Below, one piece after another: positions 3,397-57,701 of a stretch of DNA of 64,000 nt. Made by a program: the position numbers and the translations under genes. The notes under the pieces were generated by a model, which saw only the letters and a program-made list of their open reading frames with translations, did not search any database and had not been told where the DNA came from. Source of the DNA: a virus; the IMG/VR virus record IMGVR_UViG_3300037264_006630, positions 62,001 to 126,000 of that record; one strand, given 5' to 3'. Each line of letters begins with the position of its first letter. Within the stretch, counting starts at the first letter, position 1.

Positions 3397-3770
3397 GCCA
3401 GCACCGCCTCGAGCGCGGCGGCGAGCGCGAGAACGATCTGGTGGAGCGCGGCGACCTTGACCAGCTCGGCGCGCGAGCCGGAGGCGTACATGAGGGTGAC
3501 CCCCACGCGGGGATTGTCGCGGGTGACCTCGGCCGGAGTGCGGAGGGTGATGGCGGCGTGGTCGGCCGTCTCGCACCAGACCGAGGCGTCGGACCGGTAG
3601 CGAACCTCGACACGCTCACCGCGCGCGAAGGCGTCACGCATCATCGCGGCGTCGATCAGTGCCCCGTTGTGGTCGTACAGCCAGGGCTCTTTGGCGAGGA
3701 GCAGCATCACGAGGTTGACCTGGTTGTCGGTCGGGACGGCGGACGCGATCGTGGGCTGCGGTGCGTTCAT
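3393..3770 (-). CDS. Hypothetical protein, first gene of a leaderless operon
   Basis: 125 residues. It begins MNAPQPT; the MN start is imposed by the operator overlapping the start codon. The C-terminal half is similar to the following gene. It heads a six-gene leftward operon (3770 to 1544) in which all junctions overlap or touch. Confidence 0.75.
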   Translation of the reverse strand: MNAPQPTIASAVPTDNQVNLVMLLLAKEPWLYDHNGALIDAAMMRDAFARGERVEVRYRSDASVWCETADHAAITLRTPAEVTRDNPRVGVTLMYASGSRAELVKVAALHQIVLALAAALEAVLA

Positions 3771-3806
3771 ACACACGTTGATACGCACGAAACGCGCGCT
3801 CGTCAA
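3766..3806 (-). promoter_or_regulatory. Type A leaderless promoter with IR1 operator
   Basis: Minus strand: TTGACG (3801-3806), N17, TATCAA (3778-3783), 7 nt, ATG at 3770. The IR1 operator arms are TTCGTGCG (3784-3791) and TGTATGAA (3766-3773), separated by 10 bp and covering the -10 and the start codon. Confidence 0.75.
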
Positions 3807-3857
3807 GCACCATGATCGACCGAGTTGCAGGGCCTCCGATCTGGTAGCGTCGTGCGC

Positions 3858-4103
3858 GTGAAGCCTGCCGGCTCGGTGTGCCGCCTGACCTACCAGACGC
3901 CCGAGGTGGTTGAGGTTGGCGACGCCATCGTGACCGCTACGACCGGCCGGGCCTACCTCGTGATCGCCGCCAGGCGGATGCGGTCGAAGAAGCCCGGGAT
4001 GTGGATGCTCGACTGCATCGTGGCCGACGAGCTGCCGCCGGATGGCGTTCGGGTTCACCCGCTGGTCTGGTGGAGCCGAGAGCGTAAGACGCCTCGCCGG
4101 TGA
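3858..4103 (+). CDS. Hypothetical small basic protein
   Basis: 81 residues from a GTG at 3858. The core (VVEVGDAIVTATTGRAYLVIAARR) looks like a small KOW/SH3-like beta barrel followed by WMLDCIVADELPP. A TAGCGT box lies 7 nt before the GTG, as at other leaderless starts here, but without a clear -35. An earlier start at 3825 is possible. It lies alone between leftward operons. Confidence 0.6.
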   Translation: MKPAGSVCRLTYQTPEVVEVGDAIVTATTGRAYLVIAARRMRSKKPGMWMLDCIVADELPPDGVRVHPLVWWSRERKTPRR

Positions 4104-4229
4104 CCACCCGATGCGCGCCTGCGCCCCGCGCATTCCCGCCACGCCGTGACTTCCGGGCACGGCCCGAATGTGCTATCTGGGCGACCCTCCGTTCACCCTG
4201 CTGGCATGAGTGGAGCAGGGAGCAGCGCC

Positions 4230-4403
4230 ATGGACCACCGCACCGAGGACGAGAACACCCTGCCGCGCTCGGCGGCGCCGCGATCAGATGGCCAGCGGCT
4301 GGAGGCCAAGAGCGGCTTGCGGCGGCGCCTGCGGCGGACGACCCTCGGCGTCCTGCTCCGCAGCGACGAGGCGCTACGCGCGCTTCTCGAGGCTCTGCGC
4401 TGA
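4230..4403 (+). CDS. Possible small basic protein
   Basis: 57 residues (MDHRTEDENTL to LRALLEALR) with the SD-like AGGGAG 9 nt upstream. An in-frame ATG at 4206 would add 8 residues. The 3' end overlaps the opposing gene by 30 bp. It has normal codon composition but no recognised family. Confidence 0.4.
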   Translation: MDHRTEDENTLPRSAAPRSDGQRLEAKSGLRRRLRRTTLGVLLRSDEALRALLEALR

Positions 4404-5623: not shown

Positions 5624-5892
5624 ACCACGCAGTCCCGGTGCCGGCGCACGAACGCCGCGAGGATGTAGCGCCGGAGGAGTCGCCCGGGGTCGTTGTCGGG
5701 AGCGGCCAGCGTGCTGGCGACCCCGCAGGTGCAGAGCCACCCGCGCTCCGTCACCCGGACGTGGCCGAGCTTGGTCTCCTCGCGCATGCGCGCGAGGATG
5801 AGGGCGGGCTGGGTGTTGGCGAAGATGCCAGCGTTCCCGATCTTGGCGTCGTCGCGTTCGCGCCGCGTGGGACCGCGACGATGGTCGGTCAC
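5620..5892 (-). CDS. Hypothetical protein
   Basis: 90 residues from GTG (GTGA overlap with the LuxR-type gene). The centre (GHVRVTERGWLCTCGVAS) holds a CTCG pair; the C-terminus is basic and helical (LLRRYILAAFVRRHRDCVV). No family is recognised. Confidence 0.65.
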   Translation of the reverse strand: MTDHRRGPTRRERDDAKIGNAGIFANTQPALILARMREETKLGHVRVTERGWLCTCGVASTLAAPDNDPGRLLRRYILAAFVRRHRDCVV

Positions 5893-6179
5893 GTCCCGCG
5901 CACGACGCCGCCATCCGGCGTCCAGCGGTCGGCCTGCGCGATCTCGCCGGAGCGCAGCGCCAGACGCGCGAGGTCGGCGTTGTTGCGGATGCCGAACGAC
6001 TTCGTCTTCTGCAAGACGTGGCCGCGGTGGGTGTCGACCGTCTTGACGGAGGTGCCGAGCCACTGGCCGATCTCCCGGTTGGTGGCGCCCAGCGCCAGGG
6101 CCAGGAAGACCTCGTGCTCGCGCTGGGACAGGGTGCCGATGGCTTCGAGCTCGGTGGTGGGCGGGGTGCGCTTCTTCAT
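5889..6179 (-). CDS. LuxR/GerE-type HTH regulator, stand-alone
   Basis: 96 residues that are almost only a LuxR-type helix-turn-helix: LSQREHEVFLALALGATNRE (17-36) and IGQWLGTSVKTVDTHRGHV (37-55). No receiver or ligand domain is present, as in GerE. Such proteins bind short palindromic sites as dimers, so it is one candidate to bind the IR1 or IR2 palindromes; that link is inference. An SD-like GAGGA precedes the ATG, and it is coupled to the gene downstream. Confidence 0.85.
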   Translation of the reverse strand: MKKRTPPTTELEAIGTLSQREHEVFLALALGATNREIGQWLGTSVKTVDTHRGHVLQKTKSFGIRNNADLARLALRSGEIAQADRWTPDGGVVRGT

Positions 6180-8471: not shown

Positions 8472-9067
8472 CACGAGCTACCTCCGCTGGTGACACGCTG
8501 CCAGTCCTCGATGGGCACCAGGATCCCCTGGAAATGGGGCGTGTGGTTCCAGGGGGAGTCGCGAAGTTGCTCCCAGGCGGTGGCCGTCTTCGTCCACAGC
8601 AGGGGGTGGCTCTTCGGGTCGATGAGCGCCGTCCGGTAGGTGCGGCCTCGATCGCCCGTGTACTCGACCCCCATGGAGCCGCTCCCGAAGAGCGGGTGGT
8701 TGAGGAGCTGATGGAGTGCGCCGGAGATCCGGGCGACTGCCCCATGGGGCTGCGTCTGGTTGCACGCGTAGGCGGCGATGACCAGGGCTTGAACCAGGAG
8801 CGCCGGCTGGAGCCCGTCGATGGCGTCCTGGAGATCGCGCGCGGCGCGGTGCGAATCGCACTCGATGAGCAGGTCGCCGCCGCCGTTGACCCGACGCGGG
8901 AAGCGCTTCGGGAAGCCGTTGCCGTCCTGGGCGTCCATGGCCGGCGCGATCGCGGCGACGATGAAGGCGGCGAGTTGCGTGGAGGCGACGTGATCGAAGC
9001 CCTCGCTGATGACCACTACCTGCGGCACGTCCTGGTGCGTGCAGGCGTAGACCCGCTGCGGCTTCAC
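8471..9067 (-). CDS. Hypothetical protein of a tandem paralogous set
   Basis: 198 residues from GTG at a GTGA overlap. The middle (GGGDLLIECDSHRAARDLQD, QALVIAAYACNQ) is the module shared with the 7712 and 9064 genes; residues after 120 (LNHPLFGSGSMGVEYTGDRG) form a separate unassigned domain. Confidence 0.7.
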   Translation of the reverse strand: MKPQRVYACTHQDVPQVVVISEGFDHVASTQLAAFIVAAIAPAMDAQDGNGFPKRFPRRVNGGGDLLIECDSHRAARDLQDAIDGLQPALLVQALVIAAYACNQTQPHGAVARISGALHQLLNHPLFGSGSMGVEYTGDRGRTYRTALIDPKSHPLLWTKTATAWEQLRDSPWNHTPHFQGILVPIEDWQRVTSGGSS

Positions 9068-9369
9068 GACGCGCACCCGAGGACTGCGAGGGCGGCGCGC
9101 ACGTAGTCGGCGAACGACGGGATGGCGTTGATGACGGCGGCGATCTCCTTGGCGTGCTCGTGGCTCTTGCACTTGATGAGCACGTTCTTGGTGTCGGCCG
9201 GAATGACTGGCTCCTCCACGCCGCTGAGGTGATGTACGGTGCGCCAGACGCCGGCGGCGACGGCGTGGGCGGCGACGGCGCGCGGAACGCCGATCCCGAC
9301 CAGGTTGTCGTGGGTGATGAACACGCCGCTGCCGAGCGCGATGGCTTCGATGCGGGGGCGCGTCGTCAC
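9064..9369 (-). CDS. Hypothetical protein of a tandem paralogous set
   Basis: 101 residues, GTG start. The C-terminal NVLIKCKSHEHAKEIAAVI module is shared with downstream genes. The GTG overlaps the stop of a ten-codon leader ORF that carries the predicted leaderless start, so expression probably depends on reinitiation. Confidence 0.7.
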   Translation of the reverse strand: MTTRPRIEAIALGSGVFITHDNLVGIGVPRAVAAHAVAAGVWRTVHHLSGVEEPVIPADTKNVLIKCKSHEHAKEIAAVINAIPSFADYVRAALAVLGCAS

Positions 9370-9398
9370 GGGGACGCCTCGGGCTGCGTTGGTTTCAT
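9366..9398 (-). CDS. Ten-residue leader peptide
   Basis: MKPTQPEASP then TGA. The ATG is 7 nt from the -10 box of a type A promoter and lies in the IR1 operator; the TGA overlaps the next gene's GTG (GTGA). It closes with Ser-Pro before stop, like the leader at 28484. A coupling or attenuation role is inferred. Confidence 0.5.
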   Translation of the reverse strand: MKPTQPEASP

Positions 9399-9434
9399 GC
9401 GCTTCATCGTACGCACGAAGCCGTGCGAGGTCAA
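9394..9434 (-). promoter_or_regulatory. Type A leaderless promoter with IR1 operator
   Basis: Minus strand TTGACC (9429-9434), N17, TACGAT (9406-9411), 7 nt, ATG 9398. IR1 arms TTCGTGCG (9412-9419) and CGCATGAA (9394-9401). It should drive the leftward operon from 9369 to 4374. Confidence 0.75.
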
Positions 9435-10133: not shown

Positions 10134-10313
10134 GTCCGAGTGATAGAGCACGTCGCGTGCCGATTCGTGCGCTCGTCGAAGTGTGCGAACCGGCTAGGAC
10201 GGCCACGGTCCGGAGTGTCGCTGGCGACGACAAAATCGGTGGCCCCGAGACGGTGGCGGCTCGATTGTCGTTCGATGCCGGATGGTTAGCCTCGGTGTCG
10301 CCGCCGACGACAG
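10134..10313 (-). promoter_or_regulatory. Type B promoter with IR1 and two IR2 palindromes
   Basis: Minus strand: GG at 10161-10160 and GC after exactly 10 nt, then 14 nt to an ATG at 10133. IR1 arms occupy 10164-10189. IR2 (GTGTCGCTGGCGACGACA, 10215-10232) is centred 63 bp upstream of the GG. A second copy lies at 10296-10313. The remaining sequence to 10331 holds no gene I can see. Confidence 0.65.
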
Positions 10314-13957: not shown

Positions 13958-14203
13958 TCAGATGGCGCGGCGAACGAAGCGGATGTCCCGGGCGATCACG
14001 TCGCCGATGCGGTAGACGCCGTGCTGCACCGCAGCCAGGCCAGCGACGCTCATCACCACGGTCCCGTCCGCGATCGACTTCACCCGAGCGGTCACGTCCC
14101 GGCCCGCGTAGTCCTCGAAGACGCACAGACAGCCGGGCTCGAGGTCGGGCGCGATGGTCAGGTGGGCAGCGAGCTCGGGGGCCAGGATCGTCGCGTCGGG
14201 CAT
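13958..14203 (-). CDS. Hypothetical protein with SH3/KOW-like core
   Basis: 81 residues. The centre (DYAGRDVTARVKSIADGTVVMSVAG) has the alternating strands of a small barrel. ATG 14203 is fixed by a 13-nt distance to the type B core. It heads the operon that includes the methyltransferase-helicase. Confidence 0.7.
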   Translation of the reverse strand: MPDATILAPELAAHLTIAPDLEPGCLCVFEDYAGRDVTARVKSIADGTVVMSVAGLAAVQHGVYRIGDVIARDIRFVRRAI

Positions 14204-14303
14204 GTCAGGGTGTACTGCACGCGCGGTGCCACTTCGTGCGCGCGTGCAAGTGTACGAAAGCCCCACGCACGGGCCCCCGTGGGGGTGTCATCACGGACGA
14301 CAC
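14204..14303 (-). promoter_or_regulatory. Type B promoter with IR1 and IR2
   Basis: Minus strand TGGCAC-N5-GTGCA with GG-N10-GC; the -24 GG is at 14230-14229 and GC is 13 nt from ATG 14203. IR1 arms are TTCGTACA and CGCACGAA (14233-14258). IR2 at 14285-14303 is centred 64 bp upstream of the GG. Confidence 0.75.
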
Positions 14304-14527
14304 TCGCGCGATCCGGCTGGAAATCAGCCGCGAGAATACGCAACAAGTGAAGCATCCACGCGATGTTGCCACCAGGGCGTCGTCGCCACCGACACCGCGT
14401 GACAGGCGGTCACGGCGTCTCCTAACCACGCGGATTGTGGCGGCGGTCGGGCGCTGGTTTCGAGGCCGATCGGCGGCGGCGCGACGAGGTTACGCGCGCT
14501 TATACGGGAGCGCAAACGCCGTGACTT
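14304..14527. other. Divergent intergenic region
   Basis: No convincing gene lies between the divergent promoters. A further IR2-like half-palindrome (GTCGTCGCCACCGACAC) starts near 14379, and TTACGCGC with GCGCAAA near 14493-14518 is a degraded IR1-like pair. The rest is featureless GC-rich sequence. Confidence 0.4.
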
Positions 14528-14554
14528 GGCCCGCCGACTGCAATACAACTCGGC
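14528..14554 (+). promoter_or_regulatory. Type B core promoter, weak operator
   Basis: TGGCCC-N5-CTGCAA has GG at 14528-14529 and GC at 14540-14541 (10 nt between), then 13 nt to ATG 14555. No good IR1 abuts it. Confidence 0.6.
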
Positions 14555-15465: not shown

Positions 15466-15520
15466 CTCGCGCGCTCCATCGAGTGTGTGAACTGGCACCC
15501 GAAGTGCAATGCATCCGACC
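15466..15520 (+). promoter_or_regulatory. Type B promoter with IR1
   Basis: TGGCAC-N5-GTGCAA with GG at 15494-15495 and GC at 15506-15507; 13 nt to ATG 15521. IR1 arms CTCGCGCG (15466-15473) and TGTGTGAA (15484-15491). No IR2 is evident upstream, where a gene is present. Confidence 0.65.
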
Positions 15521-16523: not shown

Positions 16524-16629
16524 GTGTCGGTGGCGACGACACTCCGGACGCCGCGTCCTCCCCGGGCGCCACGTTTCGTGCGCTTCCACGCGTGTGCAAA
16601 CTGGCCCGCACCCTGCAATACACCCAGAC
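16524..16629 (+). promoter_or_regulatory. Type B promoter with IR1 and IR2
   Basis: IR2 (GTGTCGGTGGCGACGACAC, 16524-16542), IR1 (TTCGTGCG 16575-16582, TGTGCAAA 16593-16600), core TGGCCC-N5-CTGCAA with GG at 16603-16604, and 13 nt to ATG 16630. IR2 centre is 70 bp from the GG, slightly longer than at other sites. Confidence 0.75.
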
Positions 16630-17407: not shown

Positions 17408-17447
17408 TTGACCGCGCACGGTTCGTGCGTATGATGGTGTGTATGAA
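17408..17447 (+). promoter_or_regulatory. Type A leaderless promoter with IR1 operator
   Basis: TTGACC (17408-17413), N16, TATGAT (17430-17435), 7 nt, ATG 17443. IR1 arms TTCGTGCG (17422-17429) and TGTATGAA (17440-17447). It should drive the long coupled operon to about 25450. Confidence 0.8.
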
Positions 17448-17793
17448 CGCAGCGCAGTTGCAGCCCGTCACGTTCGCGACCGTCATCACCGCGATGACCG
17501 TCGACATCCTCCTGGGCATGACCGACGCCGAGCTCATCGCGGCCTGCACGGACCCGACGAGCCCGGCCTACAAGTTCGTCACCGACACCGACCGGTCCCA
17601 CGCCGAGGAGCAGCTCCGGCTTCGCGCGCCGCAGACGATCGACGAGTTCCGCAACCGCCGCACCCGCAACGCGGCCGTGGACGCCGCGACCCGCGCCGCC
17701 GAGTACCTCCGGTCCCGCCTGGCGGCCCGATGCCGTTCGTGCTGGCGCGTGATCGTCGCTCGCGGACTCTCCACCGAGGAGCGATCGTCGTGA
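17443..17793 (+). CDS. Hypothetical protein
   Basis: 116 residues starting MNAAQLQPVT, the MN start common to type A genes. It is mostly helical (GMTDAELIAACTD; TRAAEYLRSRLAARCRSC). GTGA overlap with the next gene. Confidence 0.7.
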   Translation: MNAAQLQPVTFATVITAMTVDILLGMTDAELIAACTDPTSPAYKFVTDTDRSHAEEQLRLRAPQTIDEFRNRRTRNAAVDAATRAAEYLRSRLAARCRSCWRVIVARGLSTEERSS

Positions 17794-18407
17794 CCCTCTC
17801 TCTCGACGCGCCCGGCATGGCGCACACCTCTGACGGACCCGCCAGCCATCCGGGTGCGGCGCCCCTGTCCGCCGCTTCCGCGGAGGTGTGCGCCCCCTCG
17901 GGCTCGTCGATCGTCGGGTCCGTCGCGCTGTTCACTTACAACTGCGACCGCTCCGACGGTTCCAATCACGTCGAATGGCGGAGGCGCACCGGCCAGCGCG
18001 TCACGGTCGTGGCGCTCGACGCCCCCGCCGACGGATGGGCGCGCTCCACCCGCGAGGAGCGGATCGCGGCGGCGATGCCGTTCACCTACACGGTGCGGTG
18101 GGCGGATGGCTTCGAGGGCTCCGTGTTCGAGGACGAGATCTTGCCGGCCGCGGCCAGCGCTCCGGGCGTGATCGTCGGTCGCATCGGCCCCGCCCCCCGC
18201 CCGCCCGTCACCATTGACGCCTCCGTGCTCGCCCTGGTCCGCGCGCCGGTCCACCTGCGCGAGCGCCAGGCCCTCGGCACCTCCTACGCATCCGTGCGCC
18301 AGCTCGCCAGGCTGTCCCGCGCCGACGTCGCCGACGCGCTGGGCTGCGACGAGCAGCGCCTGGCCGACTTCGAGGCCGGGTCGATCCCGATCGACCGGAG
18401 GGGCTGA
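17790..18407 (+). CDS. Hypothetical protein with C-terminal Cro/CI-like HTH
   Basis: 205 residues from GTG. The last 45 residues (SVRQLARLSRADVADALG, CDEQRLADFEAGS) resemble an XRE-type helix-turn-helix. The remainder (SSIVGSVALFTYNC; FTYTVRWADGFEGSVFED) is unassigned. It could be a regulator; the HTH call is by eye. Confidence 0.65.
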   Translation: MTLSLDAPGMAHTSDGPASHPGAAPLSAASAEVCAPSGSSIVGSVALFTYNCDRSDGSNHVEWRRRTGQRVTVVALDAPADGWARSTREERIAAAMPFTYTVRWADGFEGSVFEDEILPAAASAPGVIVGRIGPAPRPPVTIDASVLALVRAPVHLRERQALGTSYASVRQLARLSRADVADALGCDEQRLADFEAGSIPIDRRG

Positions 18408-25468: not shown

Positions 25469-25509
25469 TTGACGGCGGCGGCGTTCGTGCGTATGTTCAG
25501 GCGCATGAA
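25469..25509 (+). promoter_or_regulatory. Type A leaderless promoter with IR1 operator
   Basis: TTGACG (25469-25474), N17, TATGTT (25492-25497), 7 nt, ATG 25505. IR1 arms TTCGTGCG (25484-25491) and CGCATGAA (25502-25509). Drives the mom operon. Confidence 0.75.
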
Positions 25510-33596: not shown

Positions 33597-34127
33597 CTAC
33601 TTGCCGTCTGCCGCCGCGAAGTCGATGCCGATCACGGTCCAGCGCTCGCCGTCGATCTCGACGGTGTGCAGGCGGTCATCGATGAACCGGGACGCCCCGC
33701 GCAGGATGCGGATCACGGTGGCCAAGCGCTTGCGCGCGAGGAGGGCGAACACCTTGGCGATCGCGGTGTCCGCGTCCCGCCATCGCGCTCGCCGCACCTC
33801 GATGTCGGCCGTGGCGCCGGCGTCGATGGCCTGCCGGTAGGCGGTGATGTGGGCCAGGTAGCAGGAGCGGATGAGGTCGATCGCCTGGGCGGCTGGCACC
33901 ATCTCGTAGTAGGCGTCACCGCCGATCCAGACGTGACCCTCGGGGATGGGACCGCCGGGTGCGTCGTCGGCGGGCCCGCGGATGATGACCAAGTCCCGTC
34001 CGGGCGGACAGACGTTCATGTCGAAGAGGATGCGCGAGAGCCAGGTGGAGAGGGAGCGCAGGTCGTCCACCGACGGGGAGGTGAAGGGCGGCCCCGGGAA
34101 CGCGATCACGCCGTCGTCAGGTTTCAT
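33597..34127 (-). CDS. Hypothetical protein
   Basis: 176 residues from a leaderless ATG. A Pro/Gly-rich centre (GPADDAPGGPIPEGHVWIGG) and a helical region with IAKVFALLARKRLATVI are visible. Unassigned. Confidence 0.7.
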   Translation of the reverse strand: MKPDDGVIAFPGPPFTSPSVDDLRSLSTWLSRILFDMNVCPPGRDLVIIRGPADDAPGGPIPEGHVWIGGDAYYEMVPAAQAIDLIRSCYLAHITAYRQAIDAGATADIEVRRARWRDADTAIAKVFALLARKRLATVIRILRGASRFIDDRLHTVEIDGERWTVIGIDFAAADGK

Positions 34128-34163
34128 ACACACCATGATGCGCACGAAGTTGGGCGTGGTCAA
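34123..34163 (-). promoter_or_regulatory. Type A leaderless promoter with IR1 operator
   Basis: Minus strand TTGACC (34158-34163), N17, CATCAT (34135-34140), 7 nt, ATG 34127. IR1 arms TTCGTGCG (34141-34148) and TGTATGAA (34123-34130). The promoter overlaps the 3' end of the upstream gene by a few bases. Confidence 0.75.
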
Positions 34164-35030: not shown

Positions 35031-35086
35031 GCTCTGGAAGAGATGCACGTCGAGGGCCACTTCACGCGCTCGGTGAGGTGTGCGAA
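35031..35086 (-). promoter_or_regulatory. Type B promoter with IR1
   Basis: Minus strand TGGCCC-N5-GTGCAT, GG at 35058-35057 and GC 14 nt from ATG 35030. IR1 arms TTCGCACA and CGCGTGAA (35061-35086) overlap the last codons of the PP-loop gene. No IR2 seen. Confidence 0.65.
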
Positions 35087-36900: not shown

Positions 36901-36996
36901 GCCGAGGAGTATTGCACGGCCGGTGCCACTTCACGCGCATCAGCAGACGCACGAACGACGGCCGGCTTCCGTCCGGAGTGTCGTCGGCGACGACAC
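36901..36996 (-). promoter_or_regulatory. Type B promoter with IR1 and IR2
   Basis: Minus strand TGGCAC-N5-GTGCAA, GG at 36927-36926, 13 nt from GC to ATG 36900. IR1 TTCGTGCG/CGCGTGAA at 36930-36955. IR2 is the perfect GTGTCGTCGGCGACGACAC (36978-36996), centred 60 bp from the GG. Confidence 0.8.
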
Positions 36997-38001: not shown

Positions 38002-38056
38002 GGTCGAGATGCTTTGCACGCGGTGTGCCGTTCGTGCGCCTAATGATGTGTACGAT
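38002..38056 (-). promoter_or_regulatory. Type B promoter with IR1
   Basis: Minus strand CGGCAC-N5-GTGCAA, GG at 38029-38028, GC 14 nt from ATG 38001. IR1 right arm CGCACGAA is perfect; the other arm is ATCGTACA (38031-38056). It lies in the gap after the 38056 gene. No IR2. Confidence 0.65.
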
Positions 38057-38858: not shown

Positions 38859-38912
38859 GCCTCGATCATAAGCACGCGGCGTGCCGTTCGTGCGCTTGTT
38901 CATGTGCGCGAA
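38859..38912 (-). promoter_or_regulatory. Type B promoter with IR1
   Basis: Minus strand CGGCAC-N5-GTGCTT, GG at 38885-38884, GC 13 nt from ATG 38858. IR1 arms TTCGCGCA and CGCACGAA (38887-38912). No IR2 at the usual distance. Confidence 0.65.
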
Positions 38913-39119: not shown

Positions 39120-39219
39120 GTGTCGTCGGTGGTGACAGGGGCAGCGCCGGCGTGGGTGTGGTGTTTCGTGCGCTTGGACGTGCGCACGAAGTGGCACGTA
39201 GCATGCTCTACATCCAGAC
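39120..39219 (+). promoter_or_regulatory. Type B promoter, best example
   Basis: IR2 GTGTCGTCGGTGGTGACAG (39120-39138); IR1 with perfect arms TTCGTGCG (39165-39172) and CGCACGAA (39183-39190); core TGGCACG-N4-ATGCT with GG at 39193-39194; GC is 13 nt from ATG 39220. IR2 centre is 64 bp from the GG. Confidence 0.8.
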
Positions 39220-41044: not shown

Positions 41045-41140
41045 GTGTCGTCGCCGACGACACTCCGGACTCGGGTCCCCCGCGTTTCGTGCGCCTGAAC
41101 GTACGCGCGAACCGGCACGCCGACTGCAATACACCTCGAC
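41045..41140 (+). promoter_or_regulatory. Type B promoter with IR1 and perfect IR2
   Basis: IR2 GTGTCGTCGCCGACGACAC (41045-41063), IR1 TTCGTGCG (41086-41093) and CGCGCGAA (41104-41111), core GGCACG-N4-CTGCAA with GG at 41114-41115, 13 nt from GC to ATG 41141. IR2 centre is 60 bp from GG. Confidence 0.8.
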
Positions 41141-41543: not shown

Positions 41544-41583
41544 TTGACCTCGCCAGTTTCGTGCATATCATGGAGTGTATGAA
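41544..41583 (+). promoter_or_regulatory. Type A leaderless promoter with IR1 operator
   Basis: TTGACC (41544-41549), N16, TATCAT (41566-41571), 7 nt, ATG 41579. IR1 arms TTCGTGCA (41558-41565) and TGTATGAA (41576-41583). Confidence 0.75.
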
Positions 41584-43241: not shown

Positions 43242-43382
43242 CTGTCGTCGCGGACGACACTCCGGACCGCCGCGCGGGACGAGATCGTGCGCACTTGGAG
43301 GCGCGTGAACTTGGCACCGCTCATGCTCTACACCGGGCTGTTCGGTCGTCGAGCCGCCAACGTCTACAGGAGGACACGAGCC
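43242..43382 (+). promoter_or_regulatory. Type B promoter with a real 5' UTR
   Basis: IR2 CTGTCGTCGCGGACGACAC (43242-43260), IR1 ATCGTGCG (43284-43291) and CGCGTGAA (43302-43309), core TGGCAC-N5-ATGCT with GG at 43313-43314. Unlike all other type B sites the ATG is about 55 nt further on and has the strong SD AGGAGG. Confidence 0.75.
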
Positions 43383-45994: not shown

Positions 45995-46093
45995 GTGTCG
46001 TCGGCGACTACAGGCCGGCGACCACTCCGGAACCAGACTTCGCACACCTGCACGAGCGCACGAACCGGCACACCCCGTGCAGTACCAGGCACC
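45995..46093 (+). promoter_or_regulatory. Type B promoter with IR1 and IR2
   Basis: IR2 GTGTCGTCGGCGACTACAG (45995-46013), IR1 TTCGCACA (46039-46046) and CGCACGAA (46057-46064), core CGGCAC-N5-GTGCA with GG at 46067-46068, 13 nt from GC to ATG 46094. IR2 centre is 63 bp from GG. Drives the ibrA-ibrB operon. Confidence 0.8.
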
Positions 46094-48032: not shown

Positions 48033-49243
48033 AGCGACCGATCGGGATCGACGTCCTCGCCGCCGCTCGCCAGCGGATCGCGTGGGTGTTCGACGCCTTC
48101 CCGCGGATCTACCTGTCCGGCCCCAGCGGCAAGGACTCGTCGGTGATGATGCACCTGGTCTGCCAGGAGGCGCGTCGCCGCGGTCGGCGGGTGGGCGTGC
48201 TGTTCCTCGATCTCGAGGCGCAGTACCGCCTCACCATCGACCACGTCCGCGACATGTTCGCGCTCTACGCCGACGTGATCGATCCGTTCTGGGTCGCCCT
48301 GCCGCTCAACCTGCGCAACGCGGTGAGCCAGATCGCCCCGTTCTGGACGTGCTGGGATCCTGCGGCCGAGCCGCTCTGGGTGCGGCCCCGGGAGCCGGGC
48401 AGCATCGCCGACCCCGAGCGCTTCCCGTTCTACCGCCACGCGATGGAGTTCGAGGAGTTCGTCGAGGGGTTCGGCAACTGGTACGCGGGCGACGAGGCGT
48501 GCGCGTGCTTCGTCGGCATCCGCGCCAACGAGTCGCTCAACCGCTGGCGGGCGATCGTCCGGCGCCGGAAGTCGCGGCTCGAGGGCCGCGCCTACACCAC
48601 CTGGCGCGGTGACCAGCTCGTGAACGTCTACCCGATCTACGACTGGCGCACCGAGGATATCTGGACCTACGTCGGCCGCGAGCGCGCGGCCTACAACCGC
48701 ATCTACGACGGCATGCACCAGGCCGGGATGTCGATCCACCAGATGCGGATCTGCCAGCCCTACGGGGATGACCAGCGCCGGAGTTTGAACCTTTACCACG
48801 TCCTCGAGCCCCTCACCTGGACCCGCGTCGTCGCGCGCGTGGCCGGCGCCAACCAGGGCGCGCTCTACGCCGGCAAGCGCGGCAACATCCTCGGCAACGG
48901 CAACATCGTGCTGCCCGCCGGCCACACCTGGCAGAGCTTCGTGGAGTTCCTGCTCGCCTCGATGCCGCAGGCCGAGGCAGACAACTACCGCGACAAGATC
49001 GCGGTGTTCATCCAGTGGTGGCGCAACCGGTACGGCCTCGAGATGACCGAGGACGACGACCCCGATCTGGTCGGCACGTACAAGCGCCAGCCGACGTGGA
49101 AGCGGGTGGCCAAGGTCATCCTCAAGAACGACTTTCTCTGCAAGGGTCTGAGCTTCTCGCAGCAACGCAGCGAGCCGAGCTCGTACGACCGGTACAAGAA
49201 GCTGATGCGCGACCGCCGCGCGAGATGGGGCATCTACGCATGA
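48029..49243 (+). CDS. IbrA-like PAPS reductase-family protein (DUF3440)
   Basis: 404 residues. IYLSGPSGKDSSVMMHL (27-43) is the PP-loop; FLDLEAQYRLTIDHV, GIRANESLNRWRAI, YPIYDWRTEDIWTYV and RICQPYGDDQRRSLNLYH follow the DUF3440 pattern of IbrA. It is the usual length. IbrA is encoded next to the ParB-like IbrB, as here with one small gene between. The pair was described as regulators of immunoglobulin-binding proteins in E. coli prophages; biochemistry is unresolved. I infer sulfonucleotide or DNA-modification-type chemistry. Confidence 0.85.
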   Translation: MKRPIGIDVLAAARQRIAWVFDAFPRIYLSGPSGKDSSVMMHLVCQEARRRGRRVGVLFLDLEAQYRLTIDHVRDMFALYADVIDPFWVALPLNLRNAVSQIAPFWTCWDPAAEPLWVRPREPGSIADPERFPFYRHAMEFEEFVEGFGNWYAGDEACACFVGIRANESLNRWRAIVRRRKSRLEGRAYTTWRGDQLVNVYPIYDWRTEDIWTYVGRERAAYNRIYDGMHQAGMSIHQMRICQPYGDDQRRSLNLYHVLEPLTWTRVVARVAGANQGALYAGKRGNILGNGNIVLPAGHTWQSFVEFLLASMPQAEADNYRDKIAVFIQWWRNRYGLEMTEDDDPDLVGTYKRQPTWKRVAKVILKNDFLCKGLSFSQQRSEPSSYDRYKKLMRDRRARWGIYA

Positions 49244-49614
49244 CCGACGACAAGGACAAGAACGGCATCCCGCTGGACCTCGTGCGCGCTGCGCGCCGCG
49301 AGGAGTCGCTCCGCGGACGGGTCCACCTGTGCAGCACCCGCCGCGAGCCGCTCCTGGTCGATGGGCAGGTGGTCGGCTTCGTCACTCCGCGCCAGGTCGG
49401 CGACGCCTGGCGGCACGGCCCGATCTACGTGGCCCCGGGCTTCCGCAGTCGGGGACTCGTGGCCGCCTACTACGCCTCCCACCCGGAGCGGATCTGCGTG
49501 GCGTTCGTCGCCGACAGTAACCGCTCGTCGCGGTCTGCGCACGTCGCGGCTGGGTTCGCCAACTGGCGCCGCGGCAAGGACGGCTGGTTCATGCGGCGGG
49601 AGGCGCAGCCGTGA
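49240..49614 (+). CDS. GNAT-like acetyltransferase
   Basis: 124 residues, short for the fold. PIYVAPGFRSRGLVAAYY is the acetyl-CoA loop region and FVADSNRSSRSAHVAAGF the C-terminal GNAT pattern. It lies between IbrA-like and IbrB-like genes with 4-bp overlaps, so it may modify the same target or substrate. ATG start (ATGA). Confidence 0.75.
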   Translation: MTDDKDKNGIPLDLVRAARREESLRGRVHLCSTRREPLLVDGQVVGFVTPRQVGDAWRHGPIYVAPGFRSRGLVAAYYASHPERICVAFVADSNRSSRSAHVAAGFANWRRGKDGWFMRREAQP

Positions 49615-50240
49615 TCGAGGCCCTGACCGAGCAGCTCTGCGCCGAGCTCGCGCAGCTCGACGAGGACGCGCGGATCGACGCACTCAACGCCGTGCGCACC
49701 GCCCTGCACGCGGTGTCGCCGCTGCGCGCCGAGCCGGTCGACCTGGTGCTGTGGGTCCGGGCCGAGCAGGTCCGCGGCAACGACTACAACCCCAACAGCG
49801 TAGCGCCGCCCGAGATGCGGCTCCTCCAGCACAGCGTCCTGGCCAACGGCTTCACCATGCCGATCGTCACCCATGAGATCGACGACGGCGTGACCGAGGT
49901 GGTCGATGGGTTCCACCGCCACCGCATCGGCAAGGACACCCCGGAGATCCGCACGCGCTGTCACGCCCGCCTGCCGGTCACCCGGATCCGCGCCGACCGC
50001 GCCGACACCGGCGCCCGCATCGCCGCCACCATCGAGCACAACCGCGCCCGCGGTGAGCATCAGGTCGGCCGCATGAGCGAGATCGTCCGCATGCTGTACC
50101 AGCAGGGCTGGAGCGAGACGCGGATCATGAAGGAGTTGGGGATGGAGGCCGACGAAGTGTTGCGCCTCAAGCAGATGACCGGGCTCGCTGACCTGTTCGC
50201 GGGCCGTGAATTCTCCGAGGCATGGGAGCCGAACGAATGA
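49611..50240 (+). CDS. IbrB-like ParB-domain protein
   Basis: 209 residues. NDYNPNSVAPPEMRLLQHS (57-75) and EVVDGFHRHRIG (96-107) are the ParB/Srx-type nucleotide-binding core; GARIAATIEHNRARGEHQ and an HTH (GWSETRIMKELGMEADEV) follow as in IbrB. ParB-fold proteins bind CTP or act as ATP-dependent enzymes. Its pairing with the IbrA-like protein supports the call. Confidence 0.85.
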   Translation: MIEALTEQLCAELAQLDEDARIDALNAVRTALHAVSPLRAEPVDLVLWVRAEQVRGNDYNPNSVAPPEMRLLQHSVLANGFTMPIVTHEIDDGVTEVVDGFHRHRIGKDTPEIRTRCHARLPVTRIRADRADTGARIAATIEHNRARGEHQVGRMSEIVRMLYQQGWSETRIMKELGMEADEVLRLKQMTGLADLFAGREFSEAWEPNE

Positions 50241-51011: not shown

Positions 51012-51205
51012 CTGTCGTCGGCGCCGACACCTGCACCGCAAGCCCGCAGGCCGGCACGTCGTTCGAGGGACTGGCGAGATCGCGCACGGTCACCATCCGT
51101 TCCGCGCTGTCGCCGCCAGCGACACCCGGCCCCGATCGCCCCCAGCATCCGCGCCACCTTCCGTCCACCGCCAACCTGGCACCCCTCGTGCTCTACACCT
51201 CCACC
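51012..51205 (+). promoter_or_regulatory. Type B core with distant IR2
   Basis: IR2 CTGTCGTCGGCGCCGACAC (51012-51030) lies about 158 bp from the core TGGCAC-N5-GTGCT (GG 51178-51179, GC 51190-51191); 14 nt to ATG 51206. No convincing IR1 abuts it. The frame from 50993 stays open here but looks non-coding. Confidence 0.55.
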
Positions 51206-51365: not shown

Positions 51366-51635
51366 ATGCCCGAGTCCAAGCCCAAGAAGCTCCGCGCCGA
51401 GGTCGCCGCTCGCGCAGCCCACGGCACCCGCCAGGCCATCCCCGTCATCACCGATGTGGCGCCGGTGCCGAAGCGCCACCTGACCCTGCCGGACGTCGTT
51501 CGCGAGGTCACCCACCGCGGTCGGTTCACGGTGACCCAGATCGCCGGCGCCATCGGCGTCTCGGCCGGGTCAGTCCGGTTCTCTGAGATCGCCACCGAGG
51601 TCGGCAAGGTCCCCGGCTACCGGCCGCTCCGGTAA
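51366..51635 (+). CDS. Hypothetical protein with C-terminal HTH-like segment
   Basis: 89 residues. A basic N-terminus (ESKPKKLRAEVAARAAHG) and FTVTQIAGAIGVSAGSVRFS, which resembles a helix-turn-helix. Possible small regulator. Starts one base after the upstream stop. Confidence 0.6.
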   Translation: MPESKPKKLRAEVAARAAHGTRQAIPVITDVAPVPKRHLTLPDVVREVTHRGRFTVTQIAGAIGVSAGSVRFSEIATEVGKVPGYRPLR

Positions 51636-52293: not shown

Positions 52294-52389
52294 GGAGTCG
52301 GCGACGACAGTTGAGCCGCTACTCCGGACCAGCCTTCGCGCACATGAACGTGCGCACGAACGGCACGCCGCGTGCTGTAGTATCCGGGC
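52294..52389 (+). promoter_or_regulatory. Type B promoter with IR1 and partial IR2
   Basis: Partial IR2 (GAGTCGGCGACGACAG near 52295-52310), IR1 TTCGCGCA (52335-52342) and CGCACGAA (52353-52360), core CGGCAC-N5-GTGCT with GG at 52362-52363, 14 nt from GC to ATG 52390. Confidence 0.7.
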
Positions 52390-53544
52390 ATGCAAGCGCT
52401 CCTGAACATCACGACGACGAGGCCCGGCCGCACTGACCGTGGCGTCATCGACGATGACGCGGTTGCGGCGCTGCTCGCCGCCAACGCGCCGGTGGCGATC
52501 GGCGTGTCGGGCGGGAAGGACTCCTGCGCCTGCGCGCTGAAGACCATCGAGCACCTCGACGCGATCGGTCACACCGGCCCCCGCGTCCTGGTCCACAGCG
52601 ACTTGGGCCGGGTGGAGTGGGCGGATTCGGGCCCCACCTGCGAGCGGCTGGCCGCCCACCTCGGCCTCGAGTTGCTGACCGTCCGTCGCGAGGCTGGCGA
52701 CATGATGGACCGCTGGCTCGTCCGCTGGTCCAACAACTGCGAGCGCTACCGCACCCTCCGGTGCGTGAAGAAGATCCTGCCCTGGTCGACGCCGGCCATG
52801 CGGTTTTGCACCAGCGAGATGAAGACCGCCGTCATCTGCCGTGCCCTGGTGGCGCGCTTCCCGGGCCAGACCATCGTGTCGGCCAGCGGCATCCGCCGCG
52901 AGGAGAGCGCCCGACGGAAGAAGGCGCCGATCTCCAAGCCGCAGAAGAAGCTGACCAGCACGACCCGCTGCACCACCGGCCTGGACTGGAACCCGATCCT
53001 CGAGTGGACCAAGACCGACGTGTTCGCCTTCTGCGCTGACCGCGGCTTCGCGATGCACGAGGCGTACGCCACCTACGGGGTGACGCGGGTGAGCTGCGTG
53101 TTCTGCATCATGTCGAGCGCCGACGACCTCGTGGCCTCGGCCGCGTGCCTGGGCAACCAGGACGTCTTCCGCGAGATGGTCGACCTGGAGATTCGCAGCA
53201 CCTTTGCCTTCCAGGGCGGCAAGTGGCTGGCTGATTCTGCACCCCACCTGCTCGACGCCGACCGCCGCGCGGCCCTCGTGGTCGCCAAGGAGCGTGCAGC
53301 CCGGCGAGTGGCGGCGGAGAGCCGGATCCCCAAGCACCTCCTCTTCACCAAGGGCTGGCCCACCGTCATGCCCACCGCGGAAGAGGCGGTGATGCTGTGC
53401 GAGGTTCGCTCCGAGGTGGCCGCGCTGCTCGGCCTCACCATCGAGTACACCGAGCCCGCGGCGCTACTCGGGCGCTACCGCGAGCTGATGGCGATGAACG
53501 CGGCAAAGGTGCAGGTCGATGACGAGGACGACGACGACGCTTGA
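52390..53544 (+). CDS. PAPS reductase-family PP-loop protein
   Basis: 384 residues. VAIGVSGGKDSCACALK (35-51) has a canonical SGGKDS; HSDLGRVEW, RFCTSEMKT, SGIRREESARR, NPILEWTKTDVFAF and VSCVFCIMSS follow the phage PAPS-reductase-like family. The C-terminus is acidic (DDEDDDDA). Such phage proteins are common; the substrate is unknown. Its TGA lies inside the -35 of the next promoter. Confidence 0.85.
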   Translation: MQALLNITTTRPGRTDRGVIDDDAVAALLAANAPVAIGVSGGKDSCACALKTIEHLDAIGHTGPRVLVHSDLGRVEWADSGPTCERLAAHLGLELLTVRREAGDMMDRWLVRWSNNCERYRTLRCVKKILPWSTPAMRFCTSEMKTAVICRALVARFPGQTIVSASGIRREESARRKKAPISKPQKKLTSTTRCTTGLDWNPILEWTKTDVFAFCADRGFAMHEAYATYGVTRVSCVFCIMSSADDLVASAACLGNQDVFREMVDLEIRSTFAFQGGKWLADSAPHLLDADRRAALVVAKERAARRVAAESRIPKHLLFTKGWPTVMPTAEEAVMLCEVRSEVAALLGLTIEYTEPAALLGRYRELMAMNAAKVQVDDEDDDDA

Positions 53545-53581
53545 CCATCGCACGTTTCGTGCGTATGGTCGTGTGTATGAA
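53541..53581 (+). promoter_or_regulatory. Type A leaderless promoter with IR1 operator
   Basis: TTGACC (53541-53546), N17, TATGGT (53564-53569), 7 nt, ATG 53577. IR1 arms TTCGTGCG (53556-53563) and TGTATGAA (53574-53581). Confidence 0.8.
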
Positions 53582-54275
53582 CGCAACGCAGTCGCGGAAC
53601 CATCGCGCCGCGGCCCGGGAGATCCGGGACCGCCGGTCCCCCATGCCCAACATTTCGACCGATGATCGCACCCTGGTCACCGCTGCTCGGCGCCCCGTGG
53701 CCACCTGCCCGCCCGGCTACAGCGTGTCGGTCGGCAAGGGCGGGACGTTCCTGCCGTACAGGGGAGACCAGTCGTGGGGCTGGTGCGGTGGCGTTCACCA
53801 GTCCAGGGAGTCCGCCGTGGGCGAAGCCTGGGACCACTACGATCGCCAGGTCACCCCCGTCGATCGGCGCACCGGCATGGTCGAGATCGACGGGGTGTGG
53901 CAGTGCCGTGCCCCCGGCGAGTTCGCGCGCCGCCTGACGCGGAAGGGCGCGGCGTCCTGGCTCGCCAAGCGCGGACTCAACCCCGACGGCACCCCGATCG
54001 CGACGCCCGCCGATACCGAGGCCGCCGCCAAGGTGATGGCCTACGCCGACCGTCACGTCGCCAACCGCGGCCTCAAGCCGACCTTCCCCGCCCTCTGGCC
54101 GTGCGATCGCACGGTGCTGGACGCCTGGCCGGTCGTGGACGTCAACCACCCCAACCCGACCATCAAGACCGAGATCGCCCACTTCACCACCCGCGCGCTC
54201 GCGATGGCCGCCGTTGCCGCGGCCGAGGCGAAGCACGCCGACGTGATCACCGCGCAGCGCGGCCGAGGCGAATGA
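53577..54275 (+). CDS. Hypothetical protein
   Basis: 232 residues starting MNATQSRNHRAAAREIRD. ATCPPGYSVSVGKGGTFLPY and GMVEIDGVWQCRAPGEF form a beta-rich middle; RKGAASWLAKRG is helical. Heads the operon to 57664. Unassigned. Confidence 0.7.
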   Translation: MNATQSRNHRAAAREIRDRRSPMPNISTDDRTLVTAARRPVATCPPGYSVSVGKGGTFLPYRGDQSWGWCGGVHQSRESAVGEAWDHYDRQVTPVDRRTGMVEIDGVWQCRAPGEFARRLTRKGAASWLAKRGLNPDGTPIATPADTEAAAKVMAYADRHVANRGLKPTFPALWPCDRTVLDAWPVVDVNHPNPTIKTEIAHFTTRALAMAAVAAAEAKHADVITAQRGRGE

Positions 54276-55375: not shown

Positions 55376-56379
55376 CGCCGCTGATGGAGCGTGCGCTCAT
55401 CGAGCTCGCCGGCCGCGTCGATCCGGCCGTCCGCGGCGTGGTCGCCTTCTCGCTCGGCTTGAAGTCGCGCGCACTGGTGACGCCGTTCTGCAAGCTCGAG
55501 GACGAACGACTGATCGAGCGCACCGGCGACTCTGACCACTGGCGGATCACCGAGAAGGGCCTGGCCTACGCCGTCCACGGCATCGCCGACACCCCGGCGG
55601 GCATCGTCGCGCGCTACCGAGCCCTCGTCGATGCCCGGGAGGCAGTGGTTCCGCCCGTCCGTGATGCGCGCCAGGTCGCCGCCGATGCGCGCCTCGCCGA
55701 TCTCATCGCCGCCGCGGCCCGGGACGGCGACCTGACGGAGACCGACCTCGCGGGCGTCATGGTCGGCCTGCCGATGTCCAGGCTCGGCACCATGGCCGAG
55801 TACATCACCCGCATGGTGATCGAGTTGCGCCGCCGCCGCGAAGCCGTCGCCACCCAGGCGCCAGCGGCGTACCAGGTGGTCGGTGTGGCCGGGAACGAGC
55901 TGCTAACGACCTCGTCCGCGGACACGGCCGCGGCGCGGGTGCGCGATGCGGGACAGGGCGCAACGGTTCGTCCGCTCTACACCGCCGCATCGATCGGTCC
56001 CGACGACTCGCCGCTCATGGAGGAACTGCGCCAGCATCGCGAGCGCGTCGAGGATGCGAGGCTGGGCGCGATCGCGACAGGCACGCCGGAAGGTGTGGGT
56101 CCGGCGGAACCGTGGGACCAAGCCGAGCTCGAAGCGTTCGCCGAAGAGGTGACGCTGCTCGACGGCGTGCAGATGGCGATGTTCAACGGCTCCGCCGTGG
56201 CCAGCCTCGCCTGCGAGGTTCTGCGCAGCCGGCGCGCGCTCTCTGACCCGGCGCTCCAACCGCCGTGGCTACCCGACCTGCTCGCGATGTTCGGCTGGCA
56301 AGGCGGGACGTACAGTCAAGCTCTCGCCGAGGTGCGCCGACTGCGTGCCTTCGAGCTCGCCGCCCCGAAGGGATCCTGA
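55372..56379 (+). CDS. Winged-helix plus Ea22-like module protein
   Basis: 335 residues from GTG. Residues 1-70 (LGLKSRALVTPFCKLEDERL, then WRITEKGLAYA) look like a winged helix. The middle contains a module ending VRPLYTAAS, the same element as in the 20344 and 56382 proteins. A helical C-terminus follows. Possibly regulatory. Confidence 0.65.
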   Translation: MTPLMERALIELAGRVDPAVRGVVAFSLGLKSRALVTPFCKLEDERLIERTGDSDHWRITEKGLAYAVHGIADTPAGIVARYRALVDAREAVVPPVRDARQVAADARLADLIAAAARDGDLTETDLAGVMVGLPMSRLGTMAEYITRMVIELRRRREAVATQAPAAYQVVGVAGNELLTTSSADTAAARVRDAGQGATVRPLYTAASIGPDDSPLMEELRQHRERVEDARLGAIATGTPEGVGPAEPWDQAELEAFAEEVTLLDGVQMAMFNGSAVASLACEVLRSRRALSDPALQPPWLPDLLAMFGWQGGTYSQALAEVRRLRAFELAAPKGS

Positions 56380-56381
56380 CC

Positions 56382-57359
56382 ATGCCACCCACCCTGCTCG
56401 AGCTCTACGATCGCCTCATGACGATGGAGGGCACCGACATCCGCAACGAGGTCGCCACCCTGTGCGGGATCATGAGCGGCATCGAGGGCCGGGTGGAGAA
56501 GATGCGGCGCGGCTTCGTGCCGCTCTCCGACCTCGAAGACTGGAAGGAGCGCGCGAGGGAGGCGGGAAGCCGCCACCAGATGTTCGCGTTCGCGCTCGAC
56601 GGCATCGGCAAGATGGTCGGCGTGGCCATCGACCAGGAAGAGGGCTGGACGCACGAGGACATCGACCGGCTGGAGGCCGCGGTGTCGGCGGCGCTCCGTG
56701 ATGCCGGCATCGCCGATGCAGGCGGGATCACTGCGGGCCGACTGGCCGGGGCGTGGGCTCGGATGGAAGGCGACCCGGCGCACGCCGACAAGGACCCGAT
56801 CGATCGGGCCGGCGTGGTGCTGGGCCAGCTCAGACACAAGCCAGCGGCCACGGTCGAGACGCCGACCCAACAGCCGTACGGCTACGTCGTCACCAAGGCC
56901 CGGCCCGGCGCGTCCTTCACGACCAGCAAGGCCATCGCCGATGGGATGGTGAAAGCCCGGGACGGTGCCGAACTCGTCACGGTCTACACGGCGCCGATGC
57001 CGCCGCAGCCGTTCGCTCCGGCCAAGCGCTCCCGGCCGAGCTGCACCAACTGCCTCATCGCCAACCGCGATGACATCGACCACCGCACGGTCGACTGCCC
57101 GCATCAGACCCTCACCGTCCTCGTCGCGCTGGCTTCCCCGGACTTCATTCAGCGCCGGTTCCACGTCCGCTGTCTGATCGGCTCAAGCGACGGCCCTGCC
57201 TTCGCGCGGATCCGCTGCGGACCCAGCGGTGTACTTCAACTCGCGTGGTCCGACTCCCCCACGCGCGAGCCATGCTCCTGGGAGTTGCTCGACTGGACCG
57301 CAGACCTCATCGCCGCCGAGCAGGTCTCCTTCGTCCCGGCTCCGCCGGAGGATGCGTGA
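56382..57359 (+). CDS. Protein with Ea22-like module and Cys-rich C-terminus
   Basis: 325 residues. Helical N-terminal half; YGYVVTKARPGASFTTSKAI through LVTVYTAPMPPQPF is the shared module; CTNCLIA, DCPHQ and RCLIG follow. The C-terminal 80 residues are beta-rich. Unassigned role. Confidence 0.7.
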   Translation: MPPTLLELYDRLMTMEGTDIRNEVATLCGIMSGIEGRVEKMRRGFVPLSDLEDWKERAREAGSRHQMFAFALDGIGKMVGVAIDQEEGWTHEDIDRLEAAVSAALRDAGIADAGGITAGRLAGAWARMEGDPAHADKDPIDRAGVVLGQLRHKPAATVETPTQQPYGYVVTKARPGASFTTSKAIADGMVKARDGAELVTVYTAPMPPQPFAPAKRSRPSCTNCLIANRDDIDHRTVDCPHQTLTVLVALASPDFIQRRFHVRCLIGSSDGPAFARIRCGPSGVLQLAWSDSPTREPCSWELLDWTADLIAAEQVSFVPAPPEDA

Positions 57360-57664
57360 GCGAGGCGCCGCTGGTCGGCGGCGACCTGCACGTCTCCGCG
57401 GTCTGGTACGGCCAGAACACCGAGCGTGCGACCCGCGACGGCATGGTCTCCCTGACGCTGTCGACGCCAATCGGCGATCTGCACCAAGACCTGGGGCCGC
57501 TGTCCGCCGTCTCCTTCGGTCGCGCGCGGTCGATCGCCGACCGGCTGGGGGCGCACTTCGTGGTCCACCACGCGCTGGTCGCACTGGTCACGTCGTGGGG
57601 CTGCGATGTTTCGTGCCCCTGCGCCGACTGCTCGGCCAAGTCTCGGTCCGGCAAGCGTCCTTGA
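57356..57664 (+). CDS. Hypothetical protein with C-terminal CPCADC
   Basis: 102 residues from GTG. SAVWYGQNTERATRDGMVSL then helices, ending CDVSCPCADCSAKSRSGK, a likely metal site. Its TGA lies in the -35 of the next promoter. Confidence 0.65.
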   Translation: MSEAPLVGGDLHVSAVWYGQNTERATRDGMVSLTLSTPIGDLHQDLGPLSAVSFGRARSIADRLGAHFVVHHALVALVTSWGCDVSCPCADCSAKSRSGKRP

Positions 57665-57701
57665 CGCGCCAGACGTTCGCGCGTATCGATATGTGTATGA
57701 A
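57661..57701 (+). promoter_or_regulatory. Type A leaderless promoter with IR1 operator
   Basis: TTGACG (57661-57666), N17, TATCGA (57684-57689), 7 nt, ATG 57697. IR1 arms TTCGCGCG (57676-57683) and TGTATGAA (57694-57701). Confidence 0.75.

What the first reader, a model, noticed from the sequence alone, without database searches (positions are those of the whole stretch)
3766..57701. One 26-bp operator (IR1) shared by both promoter classes
TTCGTGCG-N10-CGCACGAA (arms often YGYAYGAA) occurs at 21 promoters on both strands. In type A it covers the -10 box to the start codon, so a bound dimer should block transcription. In type B it abuts the -24 element. One protein could therefore repress one gene set and activate or repress the other, acting as a developmental switch. 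The operator overlaps the coding start and forces the MN or MK protein start in type A genes.
Basis: partly seen in the sequence, partly recalled or inferred. Interest (0 to 1): 0.9.

Follow-up and report, generated by a model that had tools for sequence, protein, structure and literature searches.

The report
One phage operator, two promoter classes
A large, unclassified bacterial virus carries the same 26-base palindrome at about 38 promoters of two quite different kinds, so one DNA-binding protein could probably switch most of its genes off together; the protein and the host are still unknown.

Summary
The window is part of a 184,943-bp, ~70% GC tailed-phage record with no close relative found. 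IR1 (TTCRYRCR-N10-YGYRYGAA) occurs 17 times perfectly in the window, 21 times with at most one mismatch (0 and 0.1 expected), and 30 times perfectly in the whole record. No other spacer from 0 to 40 gives more than one copy.

Both promoter classes hold up. Type A (24 sites, record-wide): TTGAC, then a TANNNT -10 inside IR1, then an ATG inside the right arm, so the mRNA should be leaderless. That ATG opens a predicted gene at 20 sites and, at three more, a 7-10-codon mini-ORF whose stop overlaps the next start. Type B (14 sites, only 72-114 kb of the record): IR1 centred at -40.5 beside a GG-N10-GC element that fits the sigma-54 -24/-12 consensus at 9-11 of 12 positions. Many also have a second palindrome, IR2, near -87 and again near -178, like an enhancer pair.

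Most likely IR1 is the operator of one phage-encoded master repressor that blocks both classes, while sigma-54 plus an activator at IR2 drives type B. Activation of type B from IR1 is less likely. The binder was not identified. New variant of the dispersed-operator phage regulon.

The parts
3766..3791 (-). IR1, type A, leaderless promoter of gene 3393-3770
9394..9419 (-). IR1, type A; ATG opens a 10-codon mini-ORF (MKPTQPEASP) whose stop overlaps the GTG of gene 9064-9369; operon holds the GerE protein
17422..17447 (+). IR1, type A, start of gene 17443-17793
25484..25509 (+). IR1, type A, start of gene 25505-25684; upstream of the gene run that leads to terminase and portal
34123..34148 (-). 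IR1, type A, start of gene about 33597-34127
41558..41583 (+). IR1, type A, start of gene 41579-42949
53556..53581 (+). IR1, type A, start of gene 53577-54275
57676..57701 (+). IR1, type A; ATG opens a 7-codon mini-ORF (MNVRSPA) whose stop overlaps the ATG of gene 57717-58166
10164..10189 (-). IR1, type B (sigma54-like core 10162 down to 10147)
14233..14258 (-). IR1, type B (core 14231 down to 14216), gene 13958-14203
15466..15491 (+). IR1 (1 mismatch), type B (core 15493-15508), gene 15521-16426
16575..16600 (+). IR1 (1 mismatch), type B (core 16602-16617), gene 16630-17049
35061..35086 (-). IR1, type B (core 35059 down to 35044)
36930..36955 (-). IR1, type B (core 36928 down to 36913), gene 36631-36900
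38031..38056 (-). IR1 (1 mismatch), type B (core 38030 down to 38015), gene 37720-38001
38887..38912 (-). IR1, type B (core 38886 down to 38871), gene 38481-38858; divergent to 39165
39165..39190 (+). IR1 (perfect strict consensus), type B (core 39192-39207), gene 39220-39762
41086..41111 (+). IR1, type B (core 41113-41128), gene 41141-41530
43284..43309 (+). IR1 (1 mismatch), type B (core 43312-43327)
46039..46064 (+). IR1, type B (core 46066-46081), gene 46094-47029
52335..52360 (+). IR1, type B (core 52361-52376), gene 52390-53544 (PAPS-reductase-like)
14491..14516 (+). Degenerate, displaced IR1-like site at sigma54-like core 14527-14542, gene 14555-14824
41045..41063 (+). IR2 proximal palindrome (centre -85); distal copy at 40952-40970 (-178)
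43242..43260 (+). IR2 proximal (-87); distal copy at 43149-43167 (-180)
36978..36996 (-). IR2 proximal (-85); distal copy at 37071-37089 (-178)
14285..14303 (-). IR2 proximal (-89); distal copy at 14377-14395 (-181)
16524..16542 (+). IR2 proximal (-95); distal copy at 16441-16459 (-178)
10215..10233 (-). IR2 proximal (-88); distal copy at 10295-10313 (-168)
51012..51030 (+). IR2 distal (about -182) of the IR1-less sigma54-like promoter with core 51177-51192
51177..51192 (+). Sigma54-like core with IR2 but no recognisable IR1; precedes HTH gene 51366-51635
5889..6179 (-). GerE/LuxR-type HTH protein, candidate regulator; binding to IR1 not shown
17790..18407 (+). Protein with weak C-terminal HTH_31 match, candidate only
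51366..51635 (+). Small HTH-like protein behind the IR1-less type B promoter, candidate only

Best explanation
IR1 is the dispersed operator of one phage-encoded dimeric master repressor. At type A promoters (housekeeping-sigma -35/-10, leaderless) the repressor sits over the spacer, the -10, the start point and the start codon, and so blocks RNA polymerase. At type B promoters it sits at about -53 to -28, against the -24 element. There it keeps the sigma-54 holoenzyme off, or blocks contact with the activator. Type B promoters are driven by host sigma-54 and an enhancer-binding activator bound at the IR2 pair near -87 and -178. Loss of the repressor would release both gene sets, type B only where the activator is also active. 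Shown: the sites, their exact geometry, the two promoter classes and the keeping of the operator ATG as a start. Inferred: the protein, repression, sigma-54 dependence and the role of IR2.
For: Copies and spacing far above chance. The left arm is conserved in type A where neither promoter nor codons require it, and both arms are conserved in type B. 14 of 16 leaderless TTGAC-TANNNT starts in the record carry IR1. The operator ATG starts a called gene at 20 of 24 sites and a coupled mini-ORF at 3 more. Type B cores match TGGCACG-N4-TTGCW at 9-11 of 12 positions in 14/14, against at most 8 upstream of called genes; the published consensus is TGGCAC and TGC 5-7 nt apart (PMC12316311). IR1 centres lie at -39.5 to -41.5 for 13 of 14 type B sites, IR2 at -85 to -95 and -167 to -182. 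IR2 with a 3-nt gap is enriched, and 17 of its 18 loose matches lie in 72-114 kb. Precedents for dispersed phage repressor sites: SPbeta MrpR/SPBRE (PMC10516654) and Cluster A stoperators (PMC9283540).
Against: No known repressor family, integrase or partition ParA was recognised in the genes scanned, so the phage may not be temperate. No sigma-54 or enhancer-binding protein is encoded and the host is unknown, so host sigma-54 is an assumption. IR1 arms 18 bp apart are wide for a simple HTH dimer. Several type B promoters have no clear IR2 pair. No relatives were found, so there is no evolutionary test.
Confidence: 0.6

Rival explanations
1. Dual switch: the IR1 protein represses type A and activates type B from about -40.5, like a class II activator or the phi29 p4 protein.
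For: The IR1 centre at -39.5 to -41.5 in 13 of 14 type B sites is the classic class II activator position, and type B lacks a -35 box.
Against: The core is sigma-54-like, which is not normally activated from -41. The IR1-to-core gap varies by 2 nt. Type B often has its own IR2 pair, and cores without IR1 exist.
Confidence: 0.15
2. IR1 is the target of a host regulator that the phage has adopted, so phage genes follow host physiology.
For: No obvious phage repressor was found; if type B uses host sigma-54, borrowing host regulation would be in character.
Against: The site is at background density in 398 Pseudomonadota genomes and very dense in the phage (30 per 185 kb). The true host phylum could not be tested.
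Confidence: 0.15
3. Type B is not sigma-54: GGCNC-N6-TGCWNTA is read by a phage-modified polymerase, for example with the phage's sigma-region-4-like protein at record 171584-172225.
For: A Sigma70_r4 domain is present, and type B is confined to one region. No rpoN or activator is encoded.
Against: The match to the sigma-54 consensus and its GG-N10-GC spacing is very close in 14/14, and an enhancer-like IR2 pair is present at many of them.
Confidence: 0.15
4. The repeats are chance palindromes or mobile repeats with no regulatory role.
For: None found.
Against: Expected count 0 to 0.1 against 17 to 21; locked to promoter and start position on both strands; inner arm positions vary almost only by transitions and the spacers differ, so they are not copies of one mobile repeat.
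Confidence: 0.01

Closest known systems
SPbeta MrpR / SPBRE repressor system of Bacillus subtilis
   Same: One protein binds a repeated element in several promoters of a large phage genome (PMC10516654)
   Different: 15-bp motif; MrpR is a tyrosine-recombinase-fold protein; binder unknown here; no second promoter class of sigma-54 type is mentioned in the passages read
Cluster A mycobacteriophage repressor and stoperators
   Same: Many repressor sites dispersed through one phage genome (PMC9283540)
   Different: Stoperators are asymmetric and act on elongation; IR1 is a 26-bp palindrome locked to promoters and start codons
P1 C1 operators and plasmid RK2 KorB operators (from own knowledge)
   Same: Dispersed operators of a global repressor
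   Different: Different sites; no sigma-54 promoters; here no homologous repressor was recognised (a ParB-like protein exists at record 160947-162620, binding unknown)
Phage phi29 p4 (from own knowledge)
   Same: Precedent for one protein that represses early and activates late promoters
   Different: Here the second class has a sigma-54-like core and its own upstream palindromes, so activation from IR1 is not required
Sigma-54 promoters with enhancer-binding proteins
   Same: TGGCAC-N6-TGCW, GG-N10-GC, dyad sites about 87 and 178 bp upstream
   Different: In a phage genome, with a 26-bp operator against the -24 element; activator and sigma factor not encoded by the phage

Membership tests
Dispersed-operator phage repressor regulon | Many near-identical operators at promoters across the genome | tested here: met
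   30 perfect copies, 38 sites in all, both strands
Dispersed-operator phage repressor regulon | Operator overlaps core promoter elements | tested here: met
   -10 to start codon in type A; abuts -24 in type B
Dispersed-operator phage repressor regulon | A phage-encoded repressor that binds the operator | tested here: inconclusive
   Several HTH candidates, none linked to IR1
Dispersed-operator phage repressor regulon | Temperate life style | tested here: inconclusive
   No integrase or ParA family in the Pfam scans at E <= 5e-4; three genes spanning fetched pieces and the shortest ORFs were not scanned in that batch
Sigma-54 promoter | GG and GC exactly 10 nt apart within TGGCAC...TGC | tested here: met
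   14/14 type B, scores 9-11 of 12, control maximum 8
Sigma-54 promoter | Upstream activator sites at fixed distance | tested here: inconclusive
   An IR2 copy near -87 at 9 of 14 promoters, a distal copy too at 5 of these; the rest have none or only a distal one
Sigma-54 promoter | Host has rpoN and a cognate activator | not testable with these tools
   Host unknown; the phage encodes neither
Leaderless promoter (type A) | Start codon at the transcription start, 5-9 nt after the -10 | tested here: met
   7 nt between TANNNT and ATG; 23/24 ATG, of which 20 open a called gene and 3 a coupled mini-ORF; the transcript start itself is not mapped

The most novel reading that the evidence does not exclude
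A phage that runs a block of its genes from host sigma-54, enhancer-dependent promoters, and places them, together with nearly all its leaderless housekeeping-sigma promoters, under one master operator, so that a single phage repressor and a host physiological signal jointly gate the type B genes.
Probability: 0.5. Interest if true: 0.8.

Novelty: new variant of a known kind. Interest (0 to 1): 0.62.

Why it matters
Literature searches in the held library did not turn up a phage with a set of sigma-54 promoters; that is weak evidence, but such a phage would tie viral gene expression to host nitrogen, stress or developmental signals. An operator that contains the start codon of leaderless genes is also a compact design in which the repressor site dictates the first two amino acids, and the phage seems to get round this with tiny coupled ORFs. 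Both points can be tested directly with reporters.

Tried and rejected
Pattern scans of viral contigs for type A gave only isolated single hits in unrelated contigs, and for type B none. The one scan of genome contigs, and one of viral contigs, used a 9-nt spacer by my mistake, so their hits are irrelevant and say nothing about relatives. Terminase and capsid found no relatives in viral contigs; a 674-aa structural protein and a 4.7-kb stretch had no match in phages; terminase matched phages only at 23-25% identity in the best rows. A 58%-identical beta clamp led to contig G012, which shares nothing else. Host assignment by clamp or transposase gave only distant hits. Structure models of two HTH candidates were low in confidence, mean pLDDT 59 and 39, so no fold search was made. 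IR2 as terminators was rejected because the distance to the promoter is nearly constant and no T run follows. Rfam gave tRNAs only.
Full report
WHAT WAS CHECKED. The window is bases 62001-126000 of a 184,943-bp virus record, about 70% GC. It encodes a large terminase subunit, a portal-like protein, a major head protein, baseplate J, DnaB helicase and a beta clamp, so it is a tailed phage. With the degenerate arms TTCRYRCR and YGYRYGAA there are 17 perfect copies and 21 with at most one mismatch in the window, against 0 and 0.1 in shuffled sequence. The whole record has 30 perfect copies and none for the reversed control pattern. Only the 10-nt spacer is enriched: 30 pairs, against 0 or 1 for every other spacer from 0 to 40. 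In 398 Pseudomonadota genomes the same pattern is at background level, with 84 genomes having any match and at most 8 in 6.8 Mb.

TYPE A. Twenty-four sites lie across the record, eight of them in the window. Twenty have TTGAC 16-19 nt before a TANNNT-like box that lies inside IR1; the others have weaker -35 boxes. The right arm contains ATGAAC or ATGAAR in 23 of 24. Seven nt separate the -10 box from the ATG, so the transcript should start at or next to the ATG (inference). The ATG opens a called gene at 20 sites. At three more (record 5728; window 9394 and 57676) it opens an ORF of 7-10 codons whose stop overlaps the start codon of the next gene in GTGA or ATGA. This suggests, from sequence alone, that the operator's ATG is kept as a start even where the main protein does not begin MN or MK. 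A scan for leaderless TTGAC-TANNNT starts found 16 in the record against 0 or 1 by chance; 14 carry IR1, and one of the two exceptions lies before the beta-clamp gene pair.

TYPE B. Fourteen sites lie only between 72 and 114 kb of the record. IR1 is followed after 1-3 nt (13 sites; 11 nt at the degenerate site 14491) by GGCNC-N6-TGCW. GG and GC are exactly 10 nt apart in all 14, and the C, T and W positions of that core have no exception. I looked for GG and GC at this spacing, but the T, the second C and the W were not required. Scored against TGGCACG-N4-TTGCW, the 14 score 9-11 of 12, while the best match in the control windows upstream of called genes is 8. A 2025 survey gives the sigma-54 promoter as TGGCAC and TGC separated by 5-7 nt, says that Actinomycetota effectively lack rpoN, and notes many activators in Myxococcota (PMC12316311). 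The ATG lies 13-14 nt after the -12 C in the clear cases, again a very short leader.

IR2. A second palindrome, GTGTCGTC-N3-GACGACAC, lies upstream of most type B promoters. Its proximal copy is centred at -85 to -95 at 9 promoters; a distal copy lies at about -167 to -181, and the two copies of a pair are mostly 92-93 bp apart. Seventeen of 18 matches with at most 3 mismatches lie in the type B region, and only the 3-nt gap is clearly enriched (shuffles give 2-6 loose matches in the whole record, so the weaker copies count for less on their own). Near-constant distance argues for activator sites and against terminators of the upstream gene. At window 51177 a sigma-54-like core has an IR2 copy at about -182 and, by eye, a weaker one near -88, but no recognisable IR1; it precedes a small HTH-like gene, 51366-51635. 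Two more cores without IR1 lie at 17055 and 40333. So IR2 plus core looks like one unit and IR1 a separate addition.

MECHANISM. The simplest account is one repressor for both classes. In type A it covers the -10, the start and the first codons. In type B it covers about -53 to -28, the upstream edge of the sigma-54 polymerase footprint and the path between activator and polymerase (established knowledge of sigma-54 promoters; not tested here). Activation of type B from IR1 would suit the -40.5 position for a sigma-70 promoter, but not a sigma-54 one with its own enhancer-like pair. Steps shown: sites, geometry, two classes, start codon use. Steps inferred: protein, repression, sigma-54, IR2 as enhancer.

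THE PROTEIN. The protein at 17790-18407 has a weak C-terminal HTH match; 51366-51635 has weak HTH matches only. Structure models of the last two were poor. No integrase, sigma-54 or enhancer-binding domain was recognised in the scanned genes. The record also encodes a ParB-like protein and a sigma-region-4-like protein. None can be tied to IR1 from sequence.

COMPARISON. As a layout this works like the dispersed repressor sites of SPbeta (MrpR, PMC10516654), cluster A mycobacteriophages (PMC9283540) and, from own knowledge, P1 and RK2. It is not filed as a member of any of these, because the repressor is unknown. What differs is the coupling of one operator to two promoter machineries and its fusion with the start codon. 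No comparable sigma-54 phage regulon came up in the held papers, which is weak evidence since most subscription papers are not held.

LIMITS. Genes were called with a home-made codon model. There is one genome and no relative. The host is unknown. The genome-collection scan was wasted on a wrong spacer.

Noticed in passing
window 51012-51192 and pairs listed under parts: IR2, a second palindrome GTGTCGTC-N3-GACGACAC, occurs in pairs about 93 bp apart upstream of type B promoters; binder unknown.
   Followed up: partly
window 9366-9398 (-), 57697-57720 (+); record 5749-5775 (+): Leaderless mini-ORFs of 7-10 codons inside or just after IR1, ending in an overlap with the next start codon (GTGA/ATGA).
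   Followed up: yes
window 48029-50240: DUF3440/PAPS-reductase-like gene followed by a GNAT-like and a ParB-like gene, resembling an IbrA/IbrB pair (recalled, not tested).
   Followed up: no
window 25979-26794: Mom-like DNA modification protein (phrog_1384, E 7.5e-28; Pfam Mom).
   Followed up: no
L007 11777-15991 (record 175777-179991): SNF2-type helicase interrupted by an intein with a LAGLIDADG homing endonuclease.
   Followed up: no
L001 18177-19403: SWIM plus DDE transposase gene with TGTATTAACACC / GTGTTAATACA inverted sequence upstream, probably an insertion.
   Followed up: no
type A and type B start regions: Shared codons after the start: ATGAACGCANCGCAG in several type A genes and ATGACCACGACG-like in many type B genes, perhaps an aid to leaderless translation.
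   Followed up: no
L017-L020 (viral contigs): A single IR1-like palindrome over the -10 and ATG of an Xre-like HTH gene in an unrelated phage, with the same leaderless layout.
   Followed up: no
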